Shown here: positions 11,776 through 34,385 of the stretch, piece after piece | Layout: the number at the start of each line of letters is the position of its first letter | Position numbering within the stretch: the first letter of the stretch is position 1 | DNA from: Xenophilus aerolatus | GTDB taxonomy: Bacteria; Pseudomonadota; Gammaproteobacteria; Burkholderiales; Burkholderiaceae_C | Length of the DNA stretch: 64,000 bases | Assembly: GCA_029968055.1 (NCBI GenBank) | Contig: JASCNX010000003.1 | Location: forward strand, 248,001-312,000 | Direction of reading: 5' to 3' | The notes under the pieces: model-generated | What the model was told of the DNA's origin: nothing | Database searches by the model: none | What the model saw: the letters and a program-made list of their open reading frames with translations, nothing else | Translations under genes and position numbers: made by a program

Positions 11776-12729
11776 TCAGCGATGCGCCCAGCCGCCGGTG
11801 CCGCCGGCACGCCGGTATTCGAGCTCCATGCGGTCCACTACCGCCGCGGTCGCCTCGATGGCGGACACCGCGCCGACGCCGTGCCCCGCCGACCAGATGT
11901 CTCGCCAGCGCTTCAGGTTGTCCTGCTCCTGCGCGATGTCGAAGGAACCCGGTGTTCCGGCGAGACGATGACGGATCCTGTCCAGGCTTTTGCGCAAGAA
12001 GTTCGCCGCGATACCGGACACGGCACTGCTTTGCTCGATATCGTCTGCTCCCGCCTCCACCACCATTGCGCGGTAGGCGTCATCCGCTTGGCTCTCAGTC
12101 GTGGCAATGAAGGCCGTACCTGCGTAGCCGAAATCTGCACCCAACACCTCGAGGGCACGCAGCGCTGCTCCGTTTCCCACGGCGCCTGCGACGCCAACAG
12201 GACCATCGAAGAACTTGCGGACTTCCTCCACGAAGGCGAAGGGGCTGAGCCGCCCCGTATTGCCGCCAGCGCCGCTGCAGAGCAGGATGAGCCCATCGAC
12301 GCCGGCTGCCGCCGCTTTGCGCGCGTGCAGGACCGAAGAGACGTCGGCAAATACGGCGCCGCCATAGCGATGCACCGGATCGACCAGGCGCGCCGGACTA
12401 CCGACGGCCGAGACCACCAAGGGGACGCGATGGTTGATGCAGACGTCCAGGTCGGCTGCAAAGCGGTCGTTCGACGGGTGTGTGATGATGTTCAGCGCTG
12501 GCAGGCCGACTTGCTTGCCCTCGCTGGCCGACGCGCTGCGCACCGCGTTGATGTCCGCCAGCCAGGTGTCAAGGTCATGCGATGTCCGGGCGTTGAGCGC
12601 TGGCAAGGCACCAACGATGCCGCACCGAATGGCGGCAGTCACCAGTGCCGGCCCCGACAGAAGGAACATGGGAGCTGCCACGAGAGGCAACCGGAGTTGT
12701 TGACGCAGGTCGAGCGTGCTTGCGGTCAT
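11776..12729 (-). CDS. Nitronate monooxygenase-like (2-nitropropane dioxygenase family) flavoprotein, 1
   Basis: FMN-binding TIM-barrel enzyme, 317 aa. It shows the N-terminal LRLPLVAAPMFLLSGPALV, a central VDGLILLCSGAGGNTG (phosphate-binding Gly-rich loop) and GAVGNGAALRALEVLGADF. These features place it in the NMO/2-nitropropane dioxygenase superfamily, whose members also include enoyl reductase-like and other flavin enzymes; the family name is not proof that it oxidises nitronates. It lies 39 bp downstream of a second, more canonical paralogue and upstream of the TetR gene. Confidence 0.78.
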   Translation of the reverse strand: MTASTLDLRQQLRLPLVAAPMFLLSGPALVTAAIRCGIVGALPALNARTSHDLDTWLADINAVRSASASEGKQVGLPALNIITHPSNDRFAADLDVCINHRVPLVVSAVGSPARLVDPVHRYGGAVFADVSSVLHARKAAAAGVDGLILLCSGAGGNTGRLSPFAFVEEVRKFFDGPVGVAGAVGNGAALRALEVLGADFGYAGTAFIATTESQADDAYRAMVVEAGADDIEQSSAVSGIAANFLRKSLDRIRHRLAGTPGSFDIAQEQDNLKRWRDIWSAGHGVGAVSAIEATAAVVDRMELEYRRAGGTGGWAHR

Positions 12730-17952: not shown

Positions 17953-18720
17953 ATGACATACATCCACACCGAGAAGCGCGGATACGTCCTTCTCATCACC
18001 ATCGACCGGCCCGACGCCCGCAACGCCTTCAATCGGCAGATGGCGCTTGACCTTGAGTCGGCACTGGACGACTACGAGGCGGATCCAGCGCTACGCGTCG
18101 CCATCCTGCAGGCCAAGGGCCCGGTGTTCTGCTCCGGGCAGGACCTCAAGGCGGCCGCCAAAGGCGAATTCTCGGCCTCGCACCACCGGGGCGGCTTCGG
18201 GATCATGGCAAAGCCACCGGAGAAGCCGCTCATGGCTGCTGTCGAGGGACAGGTTCTCGCAGGAGGCATGGAAATCACGCTTTGCTGCGATCTGATCATC
18301 GCATCCAGTGCTGCAGTTTTCGGTCTAGCCGAAGCGAAGCGCAGCCTGGTGGCAACGGGCGGCGCCTGCTTCCGCCTGCCGCGACGCCTGCCTTATCCCA
18401 TCGCGATGGAAATGCTTTTGACGGCTCAAACGAAGAGCGCCGAAGAGATGCGCCAGCACGGCTACGTCAACCGGGTGGTCGAGCCCGGAGGCGCCCTGGA
18501 AGCCGCGTTGGCGATCGCCGAAATCATTGCCGCCAACGGTCCGCTCGCAGTGAGGCTTGCCAAGAAGATTGCGTGGGACGCCTTGGCCGAGCGCTGGCCG
18601 GAGTCCGAGGCGTGGGACCGCCAGGACGAGATCGTGCAGCCGCTGCTGGACTCGCACGACCTGAAGGAAGGCCTGGCCGCCTTCGCCGAAAAGCGGCCGG
18701 CCGTCTGGCTCGGGCGCTAG
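17953..18720 (+). CDS. Enoyl-CoA hydratase/isomerase family protein
   Basis: 255-aa crotonase. LLITIDRPDARNAFNRQM, VFCSGQDLKAAA, then VEGQVLAGGMEITLCCDLI form the oxyanion hole and binding core; AVFGLAEAKRSLVATGG follows where catalytic residues sit. ATG 17953 is used because the frame upstream overlaps the SDR gene and is not conserved in character. It lies 35 bp after the SDR and 74 bp before the second thiolase. Substrate is inferred only from context. Confidence 0.87.
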   Translation: MTYIHTEKRGYVLLITIDRPDARNAFNRQMALDLESALDDYEADPALRVAILQAKGPVFCSGQDLKAAAKGEFSASHHRGGFGIMAKPPEKPLMAAVEGQVLAGGMEITLCCDLIIASSAAVFGLAEAKRSLVATGGACFRLPRRLPYPIAMEMLLTAQTKSAEEMRQHGYVNRVVEPGGALEAALAIAEIIAANGPLAVRLAKKIAWDALAERWPESEAWDRQDEIVQPLLDSHDLKEGLAAFAEKRPAVWLGR

Positions 18721-21779: not shown

Positions 21780-22001
21780 CTAAGGCCGCAGTGCCGTTTG
21801 CCTTGGCGCCACTTGCGCCCGGCGTCCGCGCCACAAGCGCAGGCAGCAAACCAGATCAGGCAGTGGGATACCGCCGCGACGCATGCTCGCCGCGTAGACC
21901 AAATCACCATCCTTAACGTCACCTCGGGGGTGGTCGCGCACAGCACGTAGGTACGCCGCCATCGGTGCCACCACGGCCTGCGATCGTCGTTGAGCCATCA
22001 T
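21780..22001 (-). CDS. Small hypothetical protein coupled to the RepB-like gene (73 aa)
   Basis: Its ATG overlaps the RepB-like stop (ATGA), in step with the 4-bp overlaps of the preceding genes, which is the main evidence that it is translated. The product is basic, with GGIPLPDLVCCLRLWRGRR; no domain is recognised. The C-terminal part may be read-out into non-coding DNA. It could be a remnant of a larger gene. Confidence 0.4.
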   Translation of the reverse strand: MMAQRRSQAVVAPMAAYLRAVRDHPRGDVKDGDLVYAASMRRGGIPLPDLVCCLRLWRGRRAQVAPRQTALRP

Positions 22002-22876
22002 GCGTCAATGGATGTCAGCTCTACCAATTTGGCAAACTCCTCCAAGATTTCAGGGTAGTGCTTTTGCATGTAGTGCATCACCCGATCGTTGTCGATCATC
22101 TTCACCACATATCCGCGCGCCAGCATTAAGTTCAGCATGTCTTCACCATGGGACTGCTCTGCGATCTTGTACTGCGCGAGCAGATTAGACATCTCGGTTT
22201 CCATGCGCAGCAGTTGCTCCTGAGAGAGGGAGCGACGACCCAGCGGCCTTTTGCCAGCCAGTAGAAGATTCGATGAAGTCGCCGCTAGCAAAGCCCTGGC
22301 ATATGAAGCCGTAACGCTGTTCGCGGACACCATCAACTCCGCGCATTCAATCTGCCGCGTTGGCTTCATTCTTCTGAGCGCGACCGGGACCTCGGGCGAA
22401 AAATTGACGTCCTTGAGGAGGGCCACGACCTCTTCGCAAATGCCGTCGAGGAGGGTGCTCTTCTTTTGTAGCAACGAAACGTCGATCGACAGACCCTTGG
22501 CAAGCTTCGTTGGCGGGATCCCGCGATCTACTGCTCGACGGATCATCAGATGCTCTTGAATCGTTGATAGCCGGCTGATGCGGTTGTTGTAAGTGAAAGT
22601 CTCGTCATCAGTTGCGATGAGGCACGGCACTTCGGGAATGGAAAGCTCCTTAATAACCTCAAGCCTCAGGTGACCATCTAGAACAAGGTGATGCCCAGTT
22701 CGCTTGTCCACGGCTGACACTGAGAGAGGTTCGATTAATCCGATCTCCTGAATCGACTCGCGGATCTGCCGATACTTGGGAATGAGCTTGTTCTTTGGGT
22801 CAAGTTTCACCGACGGAAGTAGGGCGTTCACCGCGATCATGATTGGCTTAGGGAGAAAGGCCAACTGGGTGCTCAT
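21998..22876 (-). CDS. ParB/RepB-like protein with RepB-type C-terminal region
   Basis: 292 aa. The N-terminal ParB/sulfiredoxin-like domain is visible in KYRQIRESIQEIGLIEPLSV, the nucleotide-loop-like HHLVLDGHLRLEVIKEL and NNRISRLSTIQEHLMIRRA, corresponding to box I and II of ParB but diverged (DGHLR instead of GERRxxA). The rest (ISVALRRMKPTRQIECAEL-like region, residues ~165-290) resembles the RepB C-terminal domain of plasmid partition proteins. It overlaps the upstream ParB-like gene by 4 bp. No ParA is nearby, so a classic partition role is doubtful. Confidence 0.72.
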   Translation of the reverse strand: MSTQLAFLPKPIMIAVNALLPSVKLDPKNKLIPKYRQIRESIQEIGLIEPLSVSAVDKRTGHHLVLDGHLRLEVIKELSIPEVPCLIATDDETFTYNNRISRLSTIQEHLMIRRAVDRGIPPTKLAKGLSIDVSLLQKKSTLLDGICEEVVALLKDVNFSPEVPVALRRMKPTRQIECAELMVSANSVTASYARALLAATSSNLLLAGKRPLGRRSLSQEQLLRMETEMSNLLAQYKIAEQSHGEDMLNLMLARGYVVKMIDNDRVMHYMQKHYPEILEEFAKLVELTSIDA

Positions 22877-23775
22877 ATCGGGCCACCCATGCGGATTAGC
22901 CGCTCGGCGAGGTACGCCGGAAGCGTGTCTAACCCTTCCAGCCGCAAGATGTTTACCAAGTTCTCATCGGTGAACATCTTGCGCAGCGCCCCAAGAATGA
23001 AGAACAGTCGCTGCTGGGCCAGCGACGACTTTCGAACCATCATTCGCTGTCTTTCTACTTCCTTCTTGTAGGCGCGGACTAGACTTGAACTACTGACATC
23101 CGCTCGGCGTCGTGGTGGCGCTCTCGCAATACTCCGGCCGAGAAACTGGCGCCTCTCGATCAATTTTTTGGCGTACATCAACTGTGGCCCGCGGAGCTGA
23201 CCCGACTCATAGGAGTCCTGCATCGCCAACTGCACAGCCTTGTCATCGTCACCTGCTCCGACGATCAACAGTGCAACCGTGATTGGGATTTGCCCCCTGC
23301 CGACTGCTACGAGCAGCCGCTCCTCGCCTTTGTCCGCAAGTTCCAGTATTTGGCGGACATAGCCCTCATGCAAGTCGATCTTCTGCGCGATGTCCCGGGG
23401 AGAGCAGCCCTTGTCGCGAAGAAGCACGATACCGTTTAAAAGCTCCATGGGTTTGTGTCTGCGGCGCGCGATGTTCTCCGCCAAGCTCATCACGAAAGCA
23501 TCTTCGTCCGAGACTGTCACCACAAGCGCCGGTATGCTGGACTCACCCAATCGCTGGAAAGCCTTCATTCGACCCTCGCCGCAGATCAAGATATACCGCT
23601 CTGCGCCATCGGGTCCGGGCCTAGGCGTTACCGTGACCGGCTTCTTCAGCCCCACAACACCAATGTTCTTCACGATGACATCGAACTTTTGTTGATCCCT
23701 CTCGCGGGGGTTCAATACTTCGATTCGACTCAGCGGAATCATTCGAAGTTCAGGCAGAGTGAGGATGGCGGTCAT
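22873..23775 (-). CDS. ParB/RepB/Spo0J-like nuclease-domain protein
   Basis: 300 aa with a recognisable ParB core: RMIPLSRIEVLNPRERDQQK, IGVVGLKKPVTVTPR, ILICGEGRMKAFQRLG (box I) and VMSLAENIARRRHKPMEL (box II), then an HTH (GCSPRDIAQKIDLHEGYVRQ). The C-terminal third is basic and helical. It overlaps both the recombinase (23772-23775) and the RepB-like gene, so the three are co-translated. ParB proteins bind CTP and DNA; whether this one does so with the recombinase is unknown. Confidence 0.8.
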   Translation of the reverse strand: MTAILTLPELRMIPLSRIEVLNPRERDQQKFDVIVKNIGVVGLKKPVTVTPRPGPDGAERYILICGEGRMKAFQRLGESSIPALVVTVSDEDAFVMSLAENIARRRHKPMELLNGIVLLRDKGCSPRDIAQKIDLHEGYVRQILELADKGEERLLVAVGRGQIPITVALLIVGAGDDDKAVQLAMQDSYESGQLRGPQLMYAKKLIERRQFLGRSIARAPPRRRADVSSSSLVRAYKKEVERQRMMVRKSSLAQQRLFFILGALRKMFTDENLVNILRLEGLDTLPAYLAERLIRMGGPI

Positions 23776-25334
23776 GCAGCCCTCTTAAGTCGCGTGCGCG
23801 CTGCCATCTTGTAGAAGTAGTCCAAGGTTTCGAACCGATAGCTCTCTAGCTCAATCGGATTTCGCTCTGCTAGTCTGATGCGTGGACAGTTGATATCCAG
23901 CCTGGGAAGCAGGTAGTAGTCAAGCGCCGATCGGTTGTCTTGATTCAACCGTATGGCAACCGTGAGGTCCGGATTAAGCCCGGTGTCAAATCTGATCTTC
24001 CAGAAGAGGTTTCCACTCTCGACCTTATGGCATCGCGCCAGCACCAGAGAAACATCGAACTCATCATTGACCCGCAGCATGTCGGTCTCGGAATCTCGCT
24101 TCACTTTCCCTCCTATTGCCTCTATCTGCGACTCAGCGTCGCTCACGATGGCAGGGTGAAGTGCACGGAGAAGGCGATTGATCTCAATGTACTGAAAATC
24201 TCGGGCAGGTGTGTAGCCGACCAGGTGATATGCACGGATGAGGCTGCCAAAGCGAGACGCATAGACTGAGGACGATGGCATTCCCTCCGTCGAATTAATG
24301 ATCAAACCCGACAGTGCTTGTCGTTCCTCGAACAGCGTGCGAAGCCGCGTTATCAGCTCTTCGTCGCTGAGCCGTCGCGAGCGCGCCCGAATGATCCCCT
24401 GTGCTGTGTAGAAGACTTCTTTCGCGACGATCGGGGGGAAGGCGTCTTCGCGGCGAATCCACATCTCAGACGGATTCACTACCCGCAGTCTGCGAAGCTT
24501 GAAGGACACCCGGTTGTAGACATTGCTGCCGATGTACTTCTCGTTGATTAGCACCCCATGGACCATTGCCCTCGTCCAGGGTCGTCCAAGATCGGTAAGG
24601 ATCTGTTTTGAGTTGAGCCTGCCGGCGATTTGGCTTTCATGCAGACCATCTCTGACAAACCACGTGTAGATTTGCTGGACCGTCTCTACCTCGTTGTCTG
24701 GGCCCGGGACCAAGATCACACGATCAGTCTGGAGGCTCTTTTGCTCACCTCGATCCAAAAGTCCCTTGTGCTGCCCAAACTGATCAATCAAAAGCCGTCG
24801 AAGTCCGAAACCCGCGGGGCCACCCTGCCGAAAGCCCTCTTCTACGAGCCGGCATTGGCCTGCAAATACCTTTGTTGACAGCTCCCGGCTGTACTCTCCG
24901 GCCATCGCACGTTTGACCCCTTTGACGATGGTCGAAACGGGCGACCCATCGTTTTCAAACTGCTCAGCGCAGTAGATGACCTGGATGCCCGCCCGTTTGC
25001 AGATGTACTCATAGTACGCACTCTCGTCAGCATCTTGAAAGCGACCCCAACGACTCACGTCGTAGACTAGGATCATCGAATAGCCCGCACGTCCTGACTC
25101 GACGTCCTGAATGAGTTGTTGCAGCGCGAGCCTTCCAGCGAGGCGAAGGCCGCTTTTCCCCTCATCCGCGTATGTCTTCACGACGGCAATGCCGCGCTGC
25201 TTGGCGTAATCGCGGATTCGGTCGGTCTGGTTCTGCGTGGAGTACTGCTGATGTTCGGTCGACATCCGCACATATTCTGCGGCGCACACTCCGGAGGAAG
25301 GGTGTGGCAGGTCGTAGGCGGGCGTTGCTTCCAT
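23772..25334 (-). CDS. Serine recombinase (resolvase/invertase family) with unusual C-terminus
   Basis: 520 aa. The N-terminal catalytic domain shows AAEYVRMSTEHQQYSTQNQ (catalytic Ser), KTYADEGKSGLRLAGR, YSMILVYDVSRWGRFQDADE and AGEYSRELS, the resolvase landmarks. A Recombinase domain follows (IAGRLNSKQILTDLGRPWTR, GVLINEKYIGSNVYNR). The remaining ~220 residues have no CxxC zinc ribbon, unlike standard large serine recombinases. ATG 25334 follows a strong RBS (complement of ACCCCTCC at 25341-25348); a start 7 codons upstream is less likely. It heads a coupled set with two ParB-like genes. Confidence 0.85.
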   Translation of the reverse strand: MEATPAYDLPHPSSGVCAAEYVRMSTEHQQYSTQNQTDRIRDYAKQRGIAVVKTYADEGKSGLRLAGRLALQQLIQDVESGRAGYSMILVYDVSRWGRFQDADESAYYEYICKRAGIQVIYCAEQFENDGSPVSTIVKGVKRAMAGEYSRELSTKVFAGQCRLVEEGFRQGGPAGFGLRRLLIDQFGQHKGLLDRGEQKSLQTDRVILVPGPDNEVETVQQIYTWFVRDGLHESQIAGRLNSKQILTDLGRPWTRAMVHGVLINEKYIGSNVYNRVSFKLRRLRVVNPSEMWIRREDAFPPIVAKEVFYTAQGIIRARSRRLSDEELITRLRTLFEERQALSGLIINSTEGMPSSSVYASRFGSLIRAYHLVGYTPARDFQYIEINRLLRALHPAIVSDAESQIEAIGGKVKRDSETDMLRVNDEFDVSLVLARCHKVESGNLFWKIRFDTGLNPDLTVAIRLNQDNRSALDYYLLPRLDINCPRIRLAERNPIELESYRFETLDYFYKMAARTRLKRAA

Positions 25335-25462
25335 CGGGTAACCCCTCCAGCACAACTGGCTGGCTCAGAAATTTGTGCGCCGAGCGGGAGAGCGGTAGTA
25401 GGCGGCACGCGTGCACCGTATCAGGACTCTTCGGGAAATTCGATCTAGTCTTCTCTTTGCAA

Positions 25463-25894
25463 TCAGTTCGAAATGGGTGCGATCGGGATGAGCTGCACAA
25501 GCCAAAGCTGCGCCGCGCCTGGCACGCCGTTCTCTAACCCCACAAGGCAGAAGAGCCCAGGAGCTGGCGGCCACCCTGAGGACACGTCGACATTTGCAAT
25601 CGACCCGGAGCCTGAGCGGCGCCGATTGCGCTCCCTTTGCTGCTCACGATTTGAGGTGACGTACTCAGGGTGCTCTCCGCGGTATTTGCGCCAGTACGCA
25701 GGGTTTCTCTCTCGCCAAACTGACTGCGCCTCGAGCTGTTCTTGGTGATAGTCGGGGTCGGTACTACGCTTCGCTCGTTGCCACAACAGCTTTCTTGCCT
25801 TCTGGCATGCAACGTCTGAGCAGTACGCCTGTCGGGGCGCTCTAGGGTTAGGATCAAATGGCTTGCCGCAAGCGCTGCACCATCGTTTTTCCAT
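25463..25894 (-). CDS. Small Cys4 zinc-binding protein linked to the recombinase module
   Basis: 143 aa. CSACGKPFDPNPRAPRQAYC with a further Cys in SDVACQ gives a four-cysteine zinc finger at residues ~7-31, followed by a basic, Trp/Tyr/Arg-rich helical stretch (DPDYHQEQ, WRERNPAYWRKYRGEHPEY, NREQQRERNRRR). This pattern is recurrent among small proteins near recombinases, in my recollection, but has no established function. The start has an RBS (GAGGAGC). It lies 128 bp upstream of the recombinase on the same strand and may share its transcript. Confidence 0.7.
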   Translation of the reverse strand: MEKRWCSACGKPFDPNPRAPRQAYCSDVACQKARKLLWQRAKRSTDPDYHQEQLEAQSVWRERNPAYWRKYRGEHPEYVTSNREQQRERNRRRSGSGSIANVDVSSGWPPAPGLFCLVGLENGVPGAAQLWLVQLIPIAPISN

Positions 25895-26340
25895 GGTTGC
25901 TCCTCGTGCCTGTCAGGGCATGCAAGAGTGAATCCAACCTTCTCGACTGGCCCGTCGGGCTTGCGAGCAACGACCCCCGCGGGAGTCAATTTAGCAGCGA
26001 TTTCTCCTCACTTCTGACGGTGCGACCGCCGCTGGACGTCATGGAAGCATTTAGCCGAAAGCAGCCGATCGCGACCACGGTTTGAAGGTTCGCATCACTG
26101 CACAACTGTCATTGTGGATCGCGGGGCGACCGGCCGCATAGGGCCCCTTCCGGACATTCCTCCCGGCAGAAAGCGGCCGTTCGGCCGGACGGTCGCGGAT
26201 GTCAGCGTGTCGCGGATTCGACTATCGTGACGACGGAAAAGACTCGCCACGAACCACCAGCCTGAGTCGCCCGTTTTTTTCCTGGGCATGGGACATTCTG
26301 CGAGACTTGCGTCCGTTATTCCATGGACCGAGAGGGTGCA
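25895..26340. other. Intergenic region, no supported gene
   Basis: About 450 bp between divergent genes. It holds a partial, diverged copy of the dispersed motif around 26163-26185 (AAAGCGGCCGTTCGGCCGG) and stretches with local symmetry. Nothing codes convincingly. Promoters for the zinc protein (minus) and the HEPN-like gene (plus) must lie here. Confidence 0.5.
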
Positions 26341-30111: not shown

Positions 30112-30754
30112 TCAAATCTCGGTTTGCTCCGAGATCTCCAGCGCGTCGTCTACATCAATGCCGAGATATCGAACGGTCGACTCGGGCTTCGAATGGCCCA
30201 GGAGGAGTTGCACGGCGCGGAGATTCTTGGTCCTGCGGTAAATGAGCGTCGCCTTGGTGCGACGCACGGAGTGAGTACCGTAGTCCGCCGGATCCAGGCC
30301 CAGTTGCGACCCAGTGGTCGAGAATTCTGGCGTACTGGCGGGTGCCAAAATGAGGCGAGCGATGCAGCCTGCTGGGAAATAGAAAGTCTTCCGATCTCAG
30401 ACCTGCTGCCTTGATCCATCTCTGCAGCGCTTCGCGTGTGGCGGCAGTGATCTCGAACTGCACAGGGCGCTGCGTTTTGTGCTGCATGACGACAGCACGC
30501 GAAGCGACTTGGTCGCCGTGGCAGACGTCGCGCACCTTGAGTGCGACGAGGTCACATCCACGCAGCTTGCTGTCGATCCCGAGGTTGAACAGCGCGAGCT
30601 CTCTGGTCCGATTTTCCATCTGAAGGCGTACTCGCAGCGCCCAGATATCTTTGGGCTTGAGCGGGGCCTTCTGACCGACGATCTTGCCTTTGTTCCAGGG
30701 CTCACGGCTCGCAGCAGGGACAGCAGGGACAGCAGCTTCCATGAGGTCTCCCAT
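30112..30754 (-). pseudogene. Tyrosine recombinase (phage-type integrase) with a frameshift
   Basis: The first frame (30754 down) gives PWNKGKIVGQKAPLKPKDIW, RELALFNLGIDSKLRGCDLV (catalytic Arg region), QHKTQRPVQFEITAATREAL and TRQYARILDHWV. It then loses register near 30308-30310, and the adjacent frame supplies LGLDPADYGTHSVRRTKATL (HxxR), VQLLLGHSKPESTVRYLGID (LLGH and catalytic Tyr) to the stop at 30112. Joined, it is a full ~210-aa integrase of a common small family. One extra or two missing bases explain the break. Start may be 30754 or 30742. Confidence 0.8.
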
Positions 30755-30921: not shown

Positions 30922-34128
<3,207 letters not shown>

Positions 34129-34385
34129 ACGTACAGTATTCCTAAAGGTCCGGCGGCTGCGTCGGCCGTTACACAAAATTTGATCGCCGCAGCGCGACGA
34201 GCTTCGTTGCATTCCACTTTTGGCCGCTGGATGCGCGGCATGGAGGAAGCCGGCCGGACGGCCGGATGCTCGTGCCTGTCATGGTGCCCGGTGTGCTGTA
34301 CGGCCTCGACTCGTTGCAGACTGTCGTCCTATAGGCCGAGGGCGGGCGACGCAGCTCCGCTTCGTTGCGGAGTCTGTGCTGCGCA

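What the first reader, a model, noticed from the sequence alone, without database searches (positions are those of the whole stretch)
21780..25894. Compact module: Cys4 zinc protein, cysteine-poor serine recombinase, ParB-like and RepB-like proteins
Seen: four minus-strand genes (25334 to 21780) joined by 4-bp overlaps, with a Cys4 zinc-finger protein upstream. A serine recombinase translationally coupled to two different ParB-fold proteins, with no ParA and no replication gene, fits neither a standard plasmid partition locus nor a usual integrase module. ParB-fold proteins can bind CTP and load on DNA, so they might direct or restrain the recombinase, or the set could be a chromosomal element that copies or inverts DNA. 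Function is inference; I recall similar neighbourhoods in other Proteobacteria but no described system.
Basis: partly seen in the sequence, partly recalled or inferred. Interest (0 to 1): 0.8.

Follow-up and report, generated by a model that had tools for sequence, protein, structure and literature searches.

The report
Small jumping element with ParB partners
These genes look like the core of a compact DNA element, widespread in Proteobacteria, that appears to insert itself into genomes with a DNA-cutting recombinase that nearly always travels with two proteins of the kind that normally help segregate chromosomes.

Summary
Three genes at 25334-21998 (-) form a real, conserved operon: a large serine recombinase (INT) and two ParB/Noc/KorB-fold proteins (PB1, PB2). 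The fourth ORF (21780-22001) is not conserved. With enough sequence present, 75 of 76 PB2-found loci had INT+PB1 and 60 of 61 INT-found loci had PB1+PB2; distances co-vary (r 0.95-0.97). A Cys4 gene lies upstream in 70 of 73. The trio is on chromosomes, plasmids, viral contigs, and in 618 of 5426 complete E. coli genomes (651 with any match).

Across unrelated contexts the shared unit is usually a ~4.0-kb block. Two carriers show direct repeats around 4.5 and 5.0 kb (L083, L139), and pSF1 has a 5.6-kb insert that related Sphingobium plasmids lack. I read it as a compact integrative element using INT. INT lacks the zinc/coiled-coil domain that controls synapsis and direction in known serine integrases; I propose that PB1/PB2 supply that control (inferred, untested). 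Eight literature searches gave no description. The window copy's ends are unmapped; no recombination was shown; other recombinases lie near some carriers.

The parts
25463..25894 (-). CYS: Cys4 zinc-finger-like protein, 143 aa
   Evidence: upstream in 70 of 73 genome loci with room; Cys4 pattern 81 of 81
23772..25334 (-). INT: large serine recombinase, catalytic plus recombinase domain, unusual C-terminal ~200 aa without zinc ribbon
22873..23775 (-). PB1: ParB_N plus RepB C-terminal domain protein, overlaps INT by 4 bp
21998..22876 (-). PB2: RepB-domain protein with ParB/Noc/KorB fold, overlaps PB1 by 4 bp
22002..25961 (-). block shared with other carriers (CYS to PB2), about 4.0 kb; sharp loss of similarity at both sides
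   Evidence: blastn against L030, 84.7% over 3970 bp
21780..22001 (-). fourth ORF of the finding, 73 aa; judged not a gene of the module
   Evidence: no family hit, not conserved

Best explanation
It is the core of a compact integrative element of about 4-6 kb. INT, a large serine recombinase, cuts and joins at att sites in the host DNA. PB1 and PB2, ParB-fold proteins encoded in overlapping genes behind it, are its dedicated partners: they bind near the element ends (or load there as sliding clamps) and supply the synapsis or direction control that other serine integrases keep in their own zinc/coiled-coil domain. CYS, or in other carriers a DeoR-type HTH protein in the same slot, is an accessory DNA-binding or regulatory protein. 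Shown: conserved operon, near-obligate co-occurrence, intact catalytic residues, no zinc domain, a compact shared unit in unrelated contexts, flanking direct repeats in some carriers, presence/absence on related plasmids. Inferred: that INT does the insertion, and the roles of PB1, PB2 and CYS.
For: Co-occurrence 75/76 and 60/61. Distance correlation INT-PB1 0.95 (n 136), INT-PB2 0.95 (n 132), PB1-PB2 0.97 (n 132); best of 500 permutations 0.21. Discrete ~4.0-kb block in different contexts, e.g. L095/L107 94.1% over 4068 bp, L121/L130 92.8% over 4011, L100/L102 90.3% over 4020. Direct repeats across the unit (E 0.001) in 10 of 147 loci, about six independent groups, against 0 of 145 swapped-flank controls; exact repeats of 13 bp or more in 6 of 131 loci against 1 of 128 controls. 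L083: 24-bp exact repeats bound 4539 bp. L139: a 49-bp tRNA-Val 3' end (92%) bounds 4999 bp, GC 0.391 against 0.512 in the flanks, no tyrosine-integrase ORF found in the locus. Sphingobium plasmids: 30 records match the flank; pSPHCH01 and pSLPG run arsH to DUF2493 directly, pSF1 has a 5.6-kb insert there in which INT is the only annotated recombinase. Residues Y20, R22, S24, Q28, D56, D91, R94, R97, K154 are invariant in 36 of 36. About 330 of 519 residues align with SPbeta-type and Bxb1 integrases. In phiC31 the directionality factor binds through the zinc domain at the coiled-coil base (PMC5814800, passages).
Against: No excision or integration was observed. 137 of 147 loci gave no flanking repeat, and the window copy gave none above chance (best 11 bp). 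pSF1 is not a clean isogenic pair: its left flank is pSPHCH01-like (99.3%), its right flank is like other carriers and pCFD-2-2 (97-98%), so both copies of its 75-80-bp repeat may be backbone. Other recombinases are near: a tyrosine-integrase ORF about 1.8 kb outside L083's left repeat, three tyrosine-recombinase genes beside the L329 unit and others in L328, and one just outside a 46-bp repeat that encloses the L092 trio. In all six E. coli loci read the trio lies 283 bp or so behind a tyrosine integrase or its C-terminal part, and mosaics there have variable break points, so homologous recombination also moves it. The right boundary falls in classes (about 0-60, 230-250, 1430-1540 bp past PB2), so module swapping at gene ends is possible. 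PB2 occurs without INT in L111 and, outside my count for lack of room, L097, where CYS is followed directly by PB2; INT without PB2 in L191. The PM1 double copy is a large duplication. Contact between PB1/PB2 and INT was not tested.
Confidence: 0.47

Rival explanations
1. It is an integrative element and INT alone does the recombination; PB1/PB2 are a KorB- or BisD-like regulator pair that represses or times the operon, or a maintenance system for the excised circle.
For: PB1 matches KorB and Noc structures; PB2 matches Noc and KorB. Orphan ParB proteins on mobile elements are common and some act as regulators (PMC12704722, passages).
Against: Near-perfect linkage with one recombinase family and co-variation is more than regulation alone seems to need; INT lacks the usual control domain.
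Confidence: 0.28
2. The trio is a cassette carried by larger islands, prophages and plasmids and swapped by homologous or module recombination, with no mobility of its own.
For: The E. coli copies read lie behind tyrosine integrases; PB2-side boundaries sit at gene ends and fall in several classes; phage tail genes lie within about 2.2 kb of the trio in L175, L194 and L203; tyrosine recombinases near L083, L092, L328, L329.
Against: Flanking direct repeats in 10 of 147 loci and in none of 145 controls; units bounded by repeats with no other recombinase found inside in L083 and L139.
Confidence: 0.17
3. Phage-defence system carried in defence hot spots.
For: Neighbours in several loci include restriction, Abi, Fic, NACHT or toxin-antitoxin genes.
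Against: No PADLOC model matches INT, PB1 or CYS at E 0.01; PB2 has a weak hit to a methyltransferase model (7.1e-5; 6.8e-7 for the L225 PB2) over its ParB-like part. The unit also sits in viral contigs.
Confidence: 0.06
4. Remnant of a plasmid partition (repABC/parAB) locus.
For: Pfam RepB and ParB_N domains.
Against: Two different ParB-fold genes behind INT in 135 of 137 loci with room; carrier plasmids have their own ParA/ParB.
Confidence: 0.02

Closest known systems
Large serine integrases (SPbeta YokA, Bxb1, phiC31)
   Same: Catalytic and recombinase domains; about 330 alignment columns with SPbeta-type and Bxb1 structures, up to 369 (gaps included) with phiC31; invariant catalytic-type residues
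   Different: No zinc ribbon; instead a helical stretch with a weak HNH-repeat match (PF18780, below cut-off) and a beta-rich C-terminus; linked to two ParB-fold proteins
ParB / Noc / KorB / BisD family (ParB-CTPase fold)
   Same: Fold of PB2 and profile matches of PB1 and PB2
   Different: No ParA; two divergent copies in an operon with a recombinase. The 2025 survey of this fold has no occurrence of resolvase, integrase, transposase, RepB or recombinase (listing) in its text; I saw passages only
RIT elements (three tyrosine recombinases in trio; recalled)
   Same: Compact three-gene overlapping operon that moves as a unit
   Different: Serine recombinase plus ParB pair, not three tyrosine recombinases
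Serine transposons (IS607, Tn4451/Tn5397; recalled)
   Same: Serine chemistry, small element
   Different: IS607 uses a small recombinase; Tn4451-type elements are recalled as having no ParB genes

Membership tests
large serine integrase | Resolvase catalytic domain with invariant Tyr/Arg/Ser/Gln and Arg positions | tested here: met
   nine positions invariant in 36 of 36
large serine integrase | Recombinase domain PF07508 | tested here: met
   (six of six members scanned)
large serine integrase | zinc ribbon with embedded coiled coil | tested here: not met
   no zinc-ribbon Pfam hit; no CxxC in the tail of 36 of 36; model tail helical then beta
large serine integrase | att-site recombination activity | not testable with these tools
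   needs an assay
ParB-CTPase fold | ParB N-domain plus HTH fold | tested here: met
   PB1; PB2:
ParB-CTPase fold | CTP binding and DNA clamping | not testable with these tools
   PB1 keeps G66, G68, R69 and E100, N101, A103, R104, R105 invariant in 31 sequences; canonical motifs recalled as GERR and ENxxR, so one arginine differs
plasmid partition locus (parABS/repABC) | adjacent parA/repA | tested here: not met
integrative element | bounded unit with flanking repeats and empty site | tested here: inconclusive
   repeats in L083 and L139, presence/absence in pSF1 on a mosaic backbone; 137 of 147 loci without a detected repeat; window copy not resolved
anti-phage defence system | match to a known defence model | tested here: not met
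   (only a weak methyltransferase-model hit on PB2)

The most novel reading that the evidence does not exclude
A serine-integrase system in which synapsis and directionality have been moved out of the integrase into a dedicated pair of CTP-switch ParB-fold clamps, so that CTP binding and hydrolysis decide when and in which direction the element recombines.
Probability: 0.35. Interest if true: 0.9.

Novelty: new variant of a known kind. Interest (0 to 1): 0.7.

Why it matters
Direction control of serine integrases is a central question and a practical one for genome engineering. A family that lacks the domain thought to hold that control, yet keeps two ParB-fold proteins in the same operon almost without exception, makes an alternative control mechanism directly testable. 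The module is common: DNA of one subgroup covers at least 80% of the query in 618 of 5426 complete E. coli genomes; PB2 matches 36 of 399 sampled genomes of the window's family and 26 of 398 of its phylum. The records listed annotate it only as 'recombinase' and 'partition protein'. If ParB clamps act on a recombinase, that would add a use to the ParB-CTPase fold.

Tried and rejected
Fourth ORF as a gene: rejected. Tyrosine integrase as a general partner: an HMM search of the flanks of 142 units found a tyrosine-integrase ORF within 500 bp in 15, nine of them E. coli-type. Insertion inside the E. coli P4-type (recalled name) integrase gene: a 3' remnant of such a gene lies close behind the trio in L240/L242, and the integrase 3' part of L239/L242 is 95.5% alike against 85.4% before it, but L239/L240 show no such jump (88.6% and 89.7%) and sliding identity shows break points at several places, so I do not claim it. 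Agrobacterium pAt as an empty-site test: the neighbouring Fic gene lies in other contexts in the four plasmids read, useless. Genus-level sites of L031: a hot spot behind a permease gene with repeated 3' ends, but another 2-kb module is involved, inconclusive. Genus searches around G227 (3 genomes) and G144 (8 genomes) found the flank in no other genome. Methylibium PM1's two identical copies lie in a large duplication. Window ends by direct repeats: nothing above chance. Defence: no convincing model. Papers: searches (eight of ten allowed) listed no paper that I recognised as describing it; of PMC6536676, PMC12704722 and PMC5814800 I saw passages, of all others the listing only.

Full report
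What is there. The window holds, on the minus strand, CYS (25463-25894), INT (23772-25334), PB1 (22873-23775) and PB2 (21998-22876). INT/PB1 and PB1/PB2 overlap by 4 bp. INT has a resolvase and a recombinase domain, PB1 a ParB_N and RepB domain, PB2 a RepB domain. The fourth ORF of the finding (21780-22001) has no family hit and lies outside the shared DNA. A search of the window's own genome with INT gave one match. The stretch of about 21-31 kb is poorer in GC (0.55-0.60 in 2-kb windows) than its near surroundings (0.62-0.67).

How general it is. Of the 79 PB2-found loci, 76 had room upstream and 75 of these have PB1 and INT in order; the exception is L111. Of the three left out for lack of room, L097 clearly lacks INT and PB1: CYS is followed directly by PB2. 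Of the 80 INT-found loci, 61 had room downstream and 60 have PB1 and PB2; the exception is L191; three more (L221, L222, L233) had no INT match long enough for my filter, and 16 had no room. CYS is upstream in 70 of 73 genome loci with room. Many of the viral loci lack a CYS match, and in a group of 20 loci an HTH gene sits near the trio, mostly just upstream on the other strand (one member tested, DeoR-type). Pairwise distances of INT, PB1 and PB2 correlate at 0.95-0.97, CYS with INT at 0.67 (n 76). These are the closest relatives, so the counts do not speak for remote serine recombinases, and shared host descent may add to the correlations.

Prevalence. E. coli: 651 of 5426 complete genomes match DNA of the E. 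coli subgroup (L230), all chromosomal, one place each, 618 with at least 80% of the query, including a B strain. Family of the window: PB2 in 36 of 399 genomes at E 1e-40. Phylum: PB2 in 26 of 398 at E 1e-30. Plasmids: PB2 matches in 106 of 72,556 records, 81 with at least 80% of it; several are in two pieces.

The unit. All-against-all comparison shows that even at 90-94% DNA identity the shared stretch of many pairs ends just upstream of CYS and near the end of PB2, giving about 4.0 kb. Some groups share about 230-250 bp or about 1.5 kb more beyond PB2; in one locus tested the latter is a DUF3987 gene. Other pairs share kilobases on one side and nothing on the other, such as L318/L164. Viral contigs L175, L194 and L203 have phage tail genes within about 2.2 kb of the trio.

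Ends and insertion. A search for direct repeats between the 2.5 kb upstream and 0.7 kb downstream of the trio gave 10 of 147 loci at E 0.001 against 0 of 145 swapped pairs (147 of about 158 units held, some nearly identical). Four of the ten are E. coli-type and two (L194, L197) are alike, so they make about six groups. Exact repeats of 13 bp or more: 6 of 131 loci, 1 of 128 controls. The cleanest are L083 (Variovorax sp. UMC13, 24-bp exact repeats, 4539 bp) and L139 (Comamonadaceae MAG, tRNA-Val 3' end, 49 bp at 92%, 4999 bp, lower GC). A tyrosine-integrase ORF lies about 1.8 kb outside L083's left repeat. A wider, uncontrolled search also found a 46-bp repeat (98%) that encloses the L092 trio in 9.5 kb with a tyrosine-integrase ORF just outside it.

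Sphingobium plasmids. 30 records match the DUF2493 flank. I read eight of them: L326, L327, L332 and L333 without the trio, L328-L331 with it; CAP-1 (H358) carries it by its annotation. pSPHCH01 (L327) and pSLPG (L333) have arsH followed directly by DUF2493. pSF1 (L331) is 99.3% identical to pSPHCH01 up to base 12700 and resumes at 18286. The insert holds a CoiA-type nuclease gene, an HTH fragment, a hypothetical gene, INT, PB1 and PB2. An imperfect repeat of about 75-80 bp that ends in CCGGCCGTG lies on both sides in pSF1 and once at this place in the empty plasmids read. Carriers without ars genes have another left flank, yet the same heptamer GGCCGTG (L328, L330; GGCTGTG in L329). Against a simple reading: pSF1's right flank, with its copy of the repeat, matches other carriers and pCFD-2-2 (97-98%), not pSPHCH01 (78%), so both repeat copies may be backbone and backbone recombination took part; L328 and L329 also have tyrosine recombinase genes nearby.

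E. coli. In the six loci read the trio lies behind a tyrosine integrase gene or its C-terminal part. Contexts with a type I restriction system and contexts with hxs genes diverge at one base about 65 bp past PB2, where in L240/L242 a remnant of an integrase gene begins. Mosaic break points vary, so site-specific insertion there is not shown.

The proteins. INT: nine catalytic-type positions are invariant in 36 of 36 members. About 330 of its 519 residues match SPbeta-type and Bxb1 structures (model mean pLDDT 79.9, pTM 0.42). The search gives no ranges; that the tail is the unmatched part is inferred from the domain hits. The tail is helical (304-405), with a weak HNH-repeat match, then beta-rich. 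In known serine integrases the zinc domain carries the coiled coil that sets synapsis, and the phiC31 directionality factor binds at its base (PMC5814800, passages). PB2 matches ParB, Noc and KorB structures (pLDDT 78.5, pTM 0.41, so domain placement is uncertain), with long helices at the C-terminus.

Mechanism proposed. INT recombines att sites; PB1 and PB2 load at the element ends and act where the missing domain would act. The first step rests on INT being the only recombinase found inside the bounded units and on its intact catalytic site; the second is inference from near-obligate linkage and the missing domain. A regulator or maintenance role for PB1/PB2 fits the data too. I put the integrative-element reading at about 0.75 and the joint statement, with PB1/PB2 acting in recombination, at 0.47.

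Novelty. Eight searches of the held library listed no description that I recognised; most listed papers were not opened. The 2025 survey of the ParB-CTPase fold reports many orphan ParB proteins on mobile elements, but its text has none of the words recombinase, resolvase, integrase, transposase or RepB. A Paracoccus prophage survey reports 16 serine-recombinase prophages and a largest cluster of 11 (of 15) whose integration sites were not found (PMC6536676, passages); whether they belong to this family was not tested. Subscription literature and preprints were not searched.

Noticed in passing
window 30112-30754: Tyrosine-integrase remnant on the minus strand (30155-30754: Pfam Phage_integrase 1.4e-4, phrog_216 8e-12; the C-terminal part seems to lie in another frame, by eye), beside what looks by eye like a dnaE2-type polymerase gene (30922-34212) whose DNA matches several places in genomes of the genus.
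   Followed up: partly
L033 12123-12947: INT gene of a relative is split at residue 363/364 by about 0.8 kb of inserted DNA.
   Followed up: no
L151 4450-7836: INT of another relative is interrupted by about 3.4 kb that holds tyrosine-integrase ORFs.
   Followed up: no
L097 1020-2459: CYS followed directly by PB2 with INT and PB1 missing: a likely internal deletion.
   Followed up: no
L311 and L312 (G114; 100% match to Methylibium petroleiphilum PM1 plasmid L029): The trio lies in a region that is identical over the whole stretch compared on two replicons, apart from a gap next to PB2 where the plasmid record has an IS3 element.
   Followed up: partly
L096, L107, L113: Two trio units lie in tandem 1-5 kb apart; L113 may have a further recombinase stretch.
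   Followed up: no
L137 10742-12127 and a cluster of 15 loci: A DUF3987 gene (tested in L137 only) starts a few bases after PB2 and seems to be an optional fourth gene.
   Followed up: partly
L026 (NZ_CP110863.1): A 13-kb record filed as a Lactiplantibacillus plantarum plasmid carries the trio otherwise seen in Proteobacteria; contamination seems likely.
   Followed up: no
L028 and L035-L036: Ku/LigD genes lie some kb from the trio in Agrobacterium pAt (annotated), and a LigD-like ORF (by eye) near it in the window's genus.
   Followed up: no
L031 10263-12752: Repeated 3' ends of a permease gene mark an insertion hot spot; a 2-kb module (a PAAR-like ORF, by eye) lies there and also in the window's own genome (G000:C8).
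   Followed up: partly
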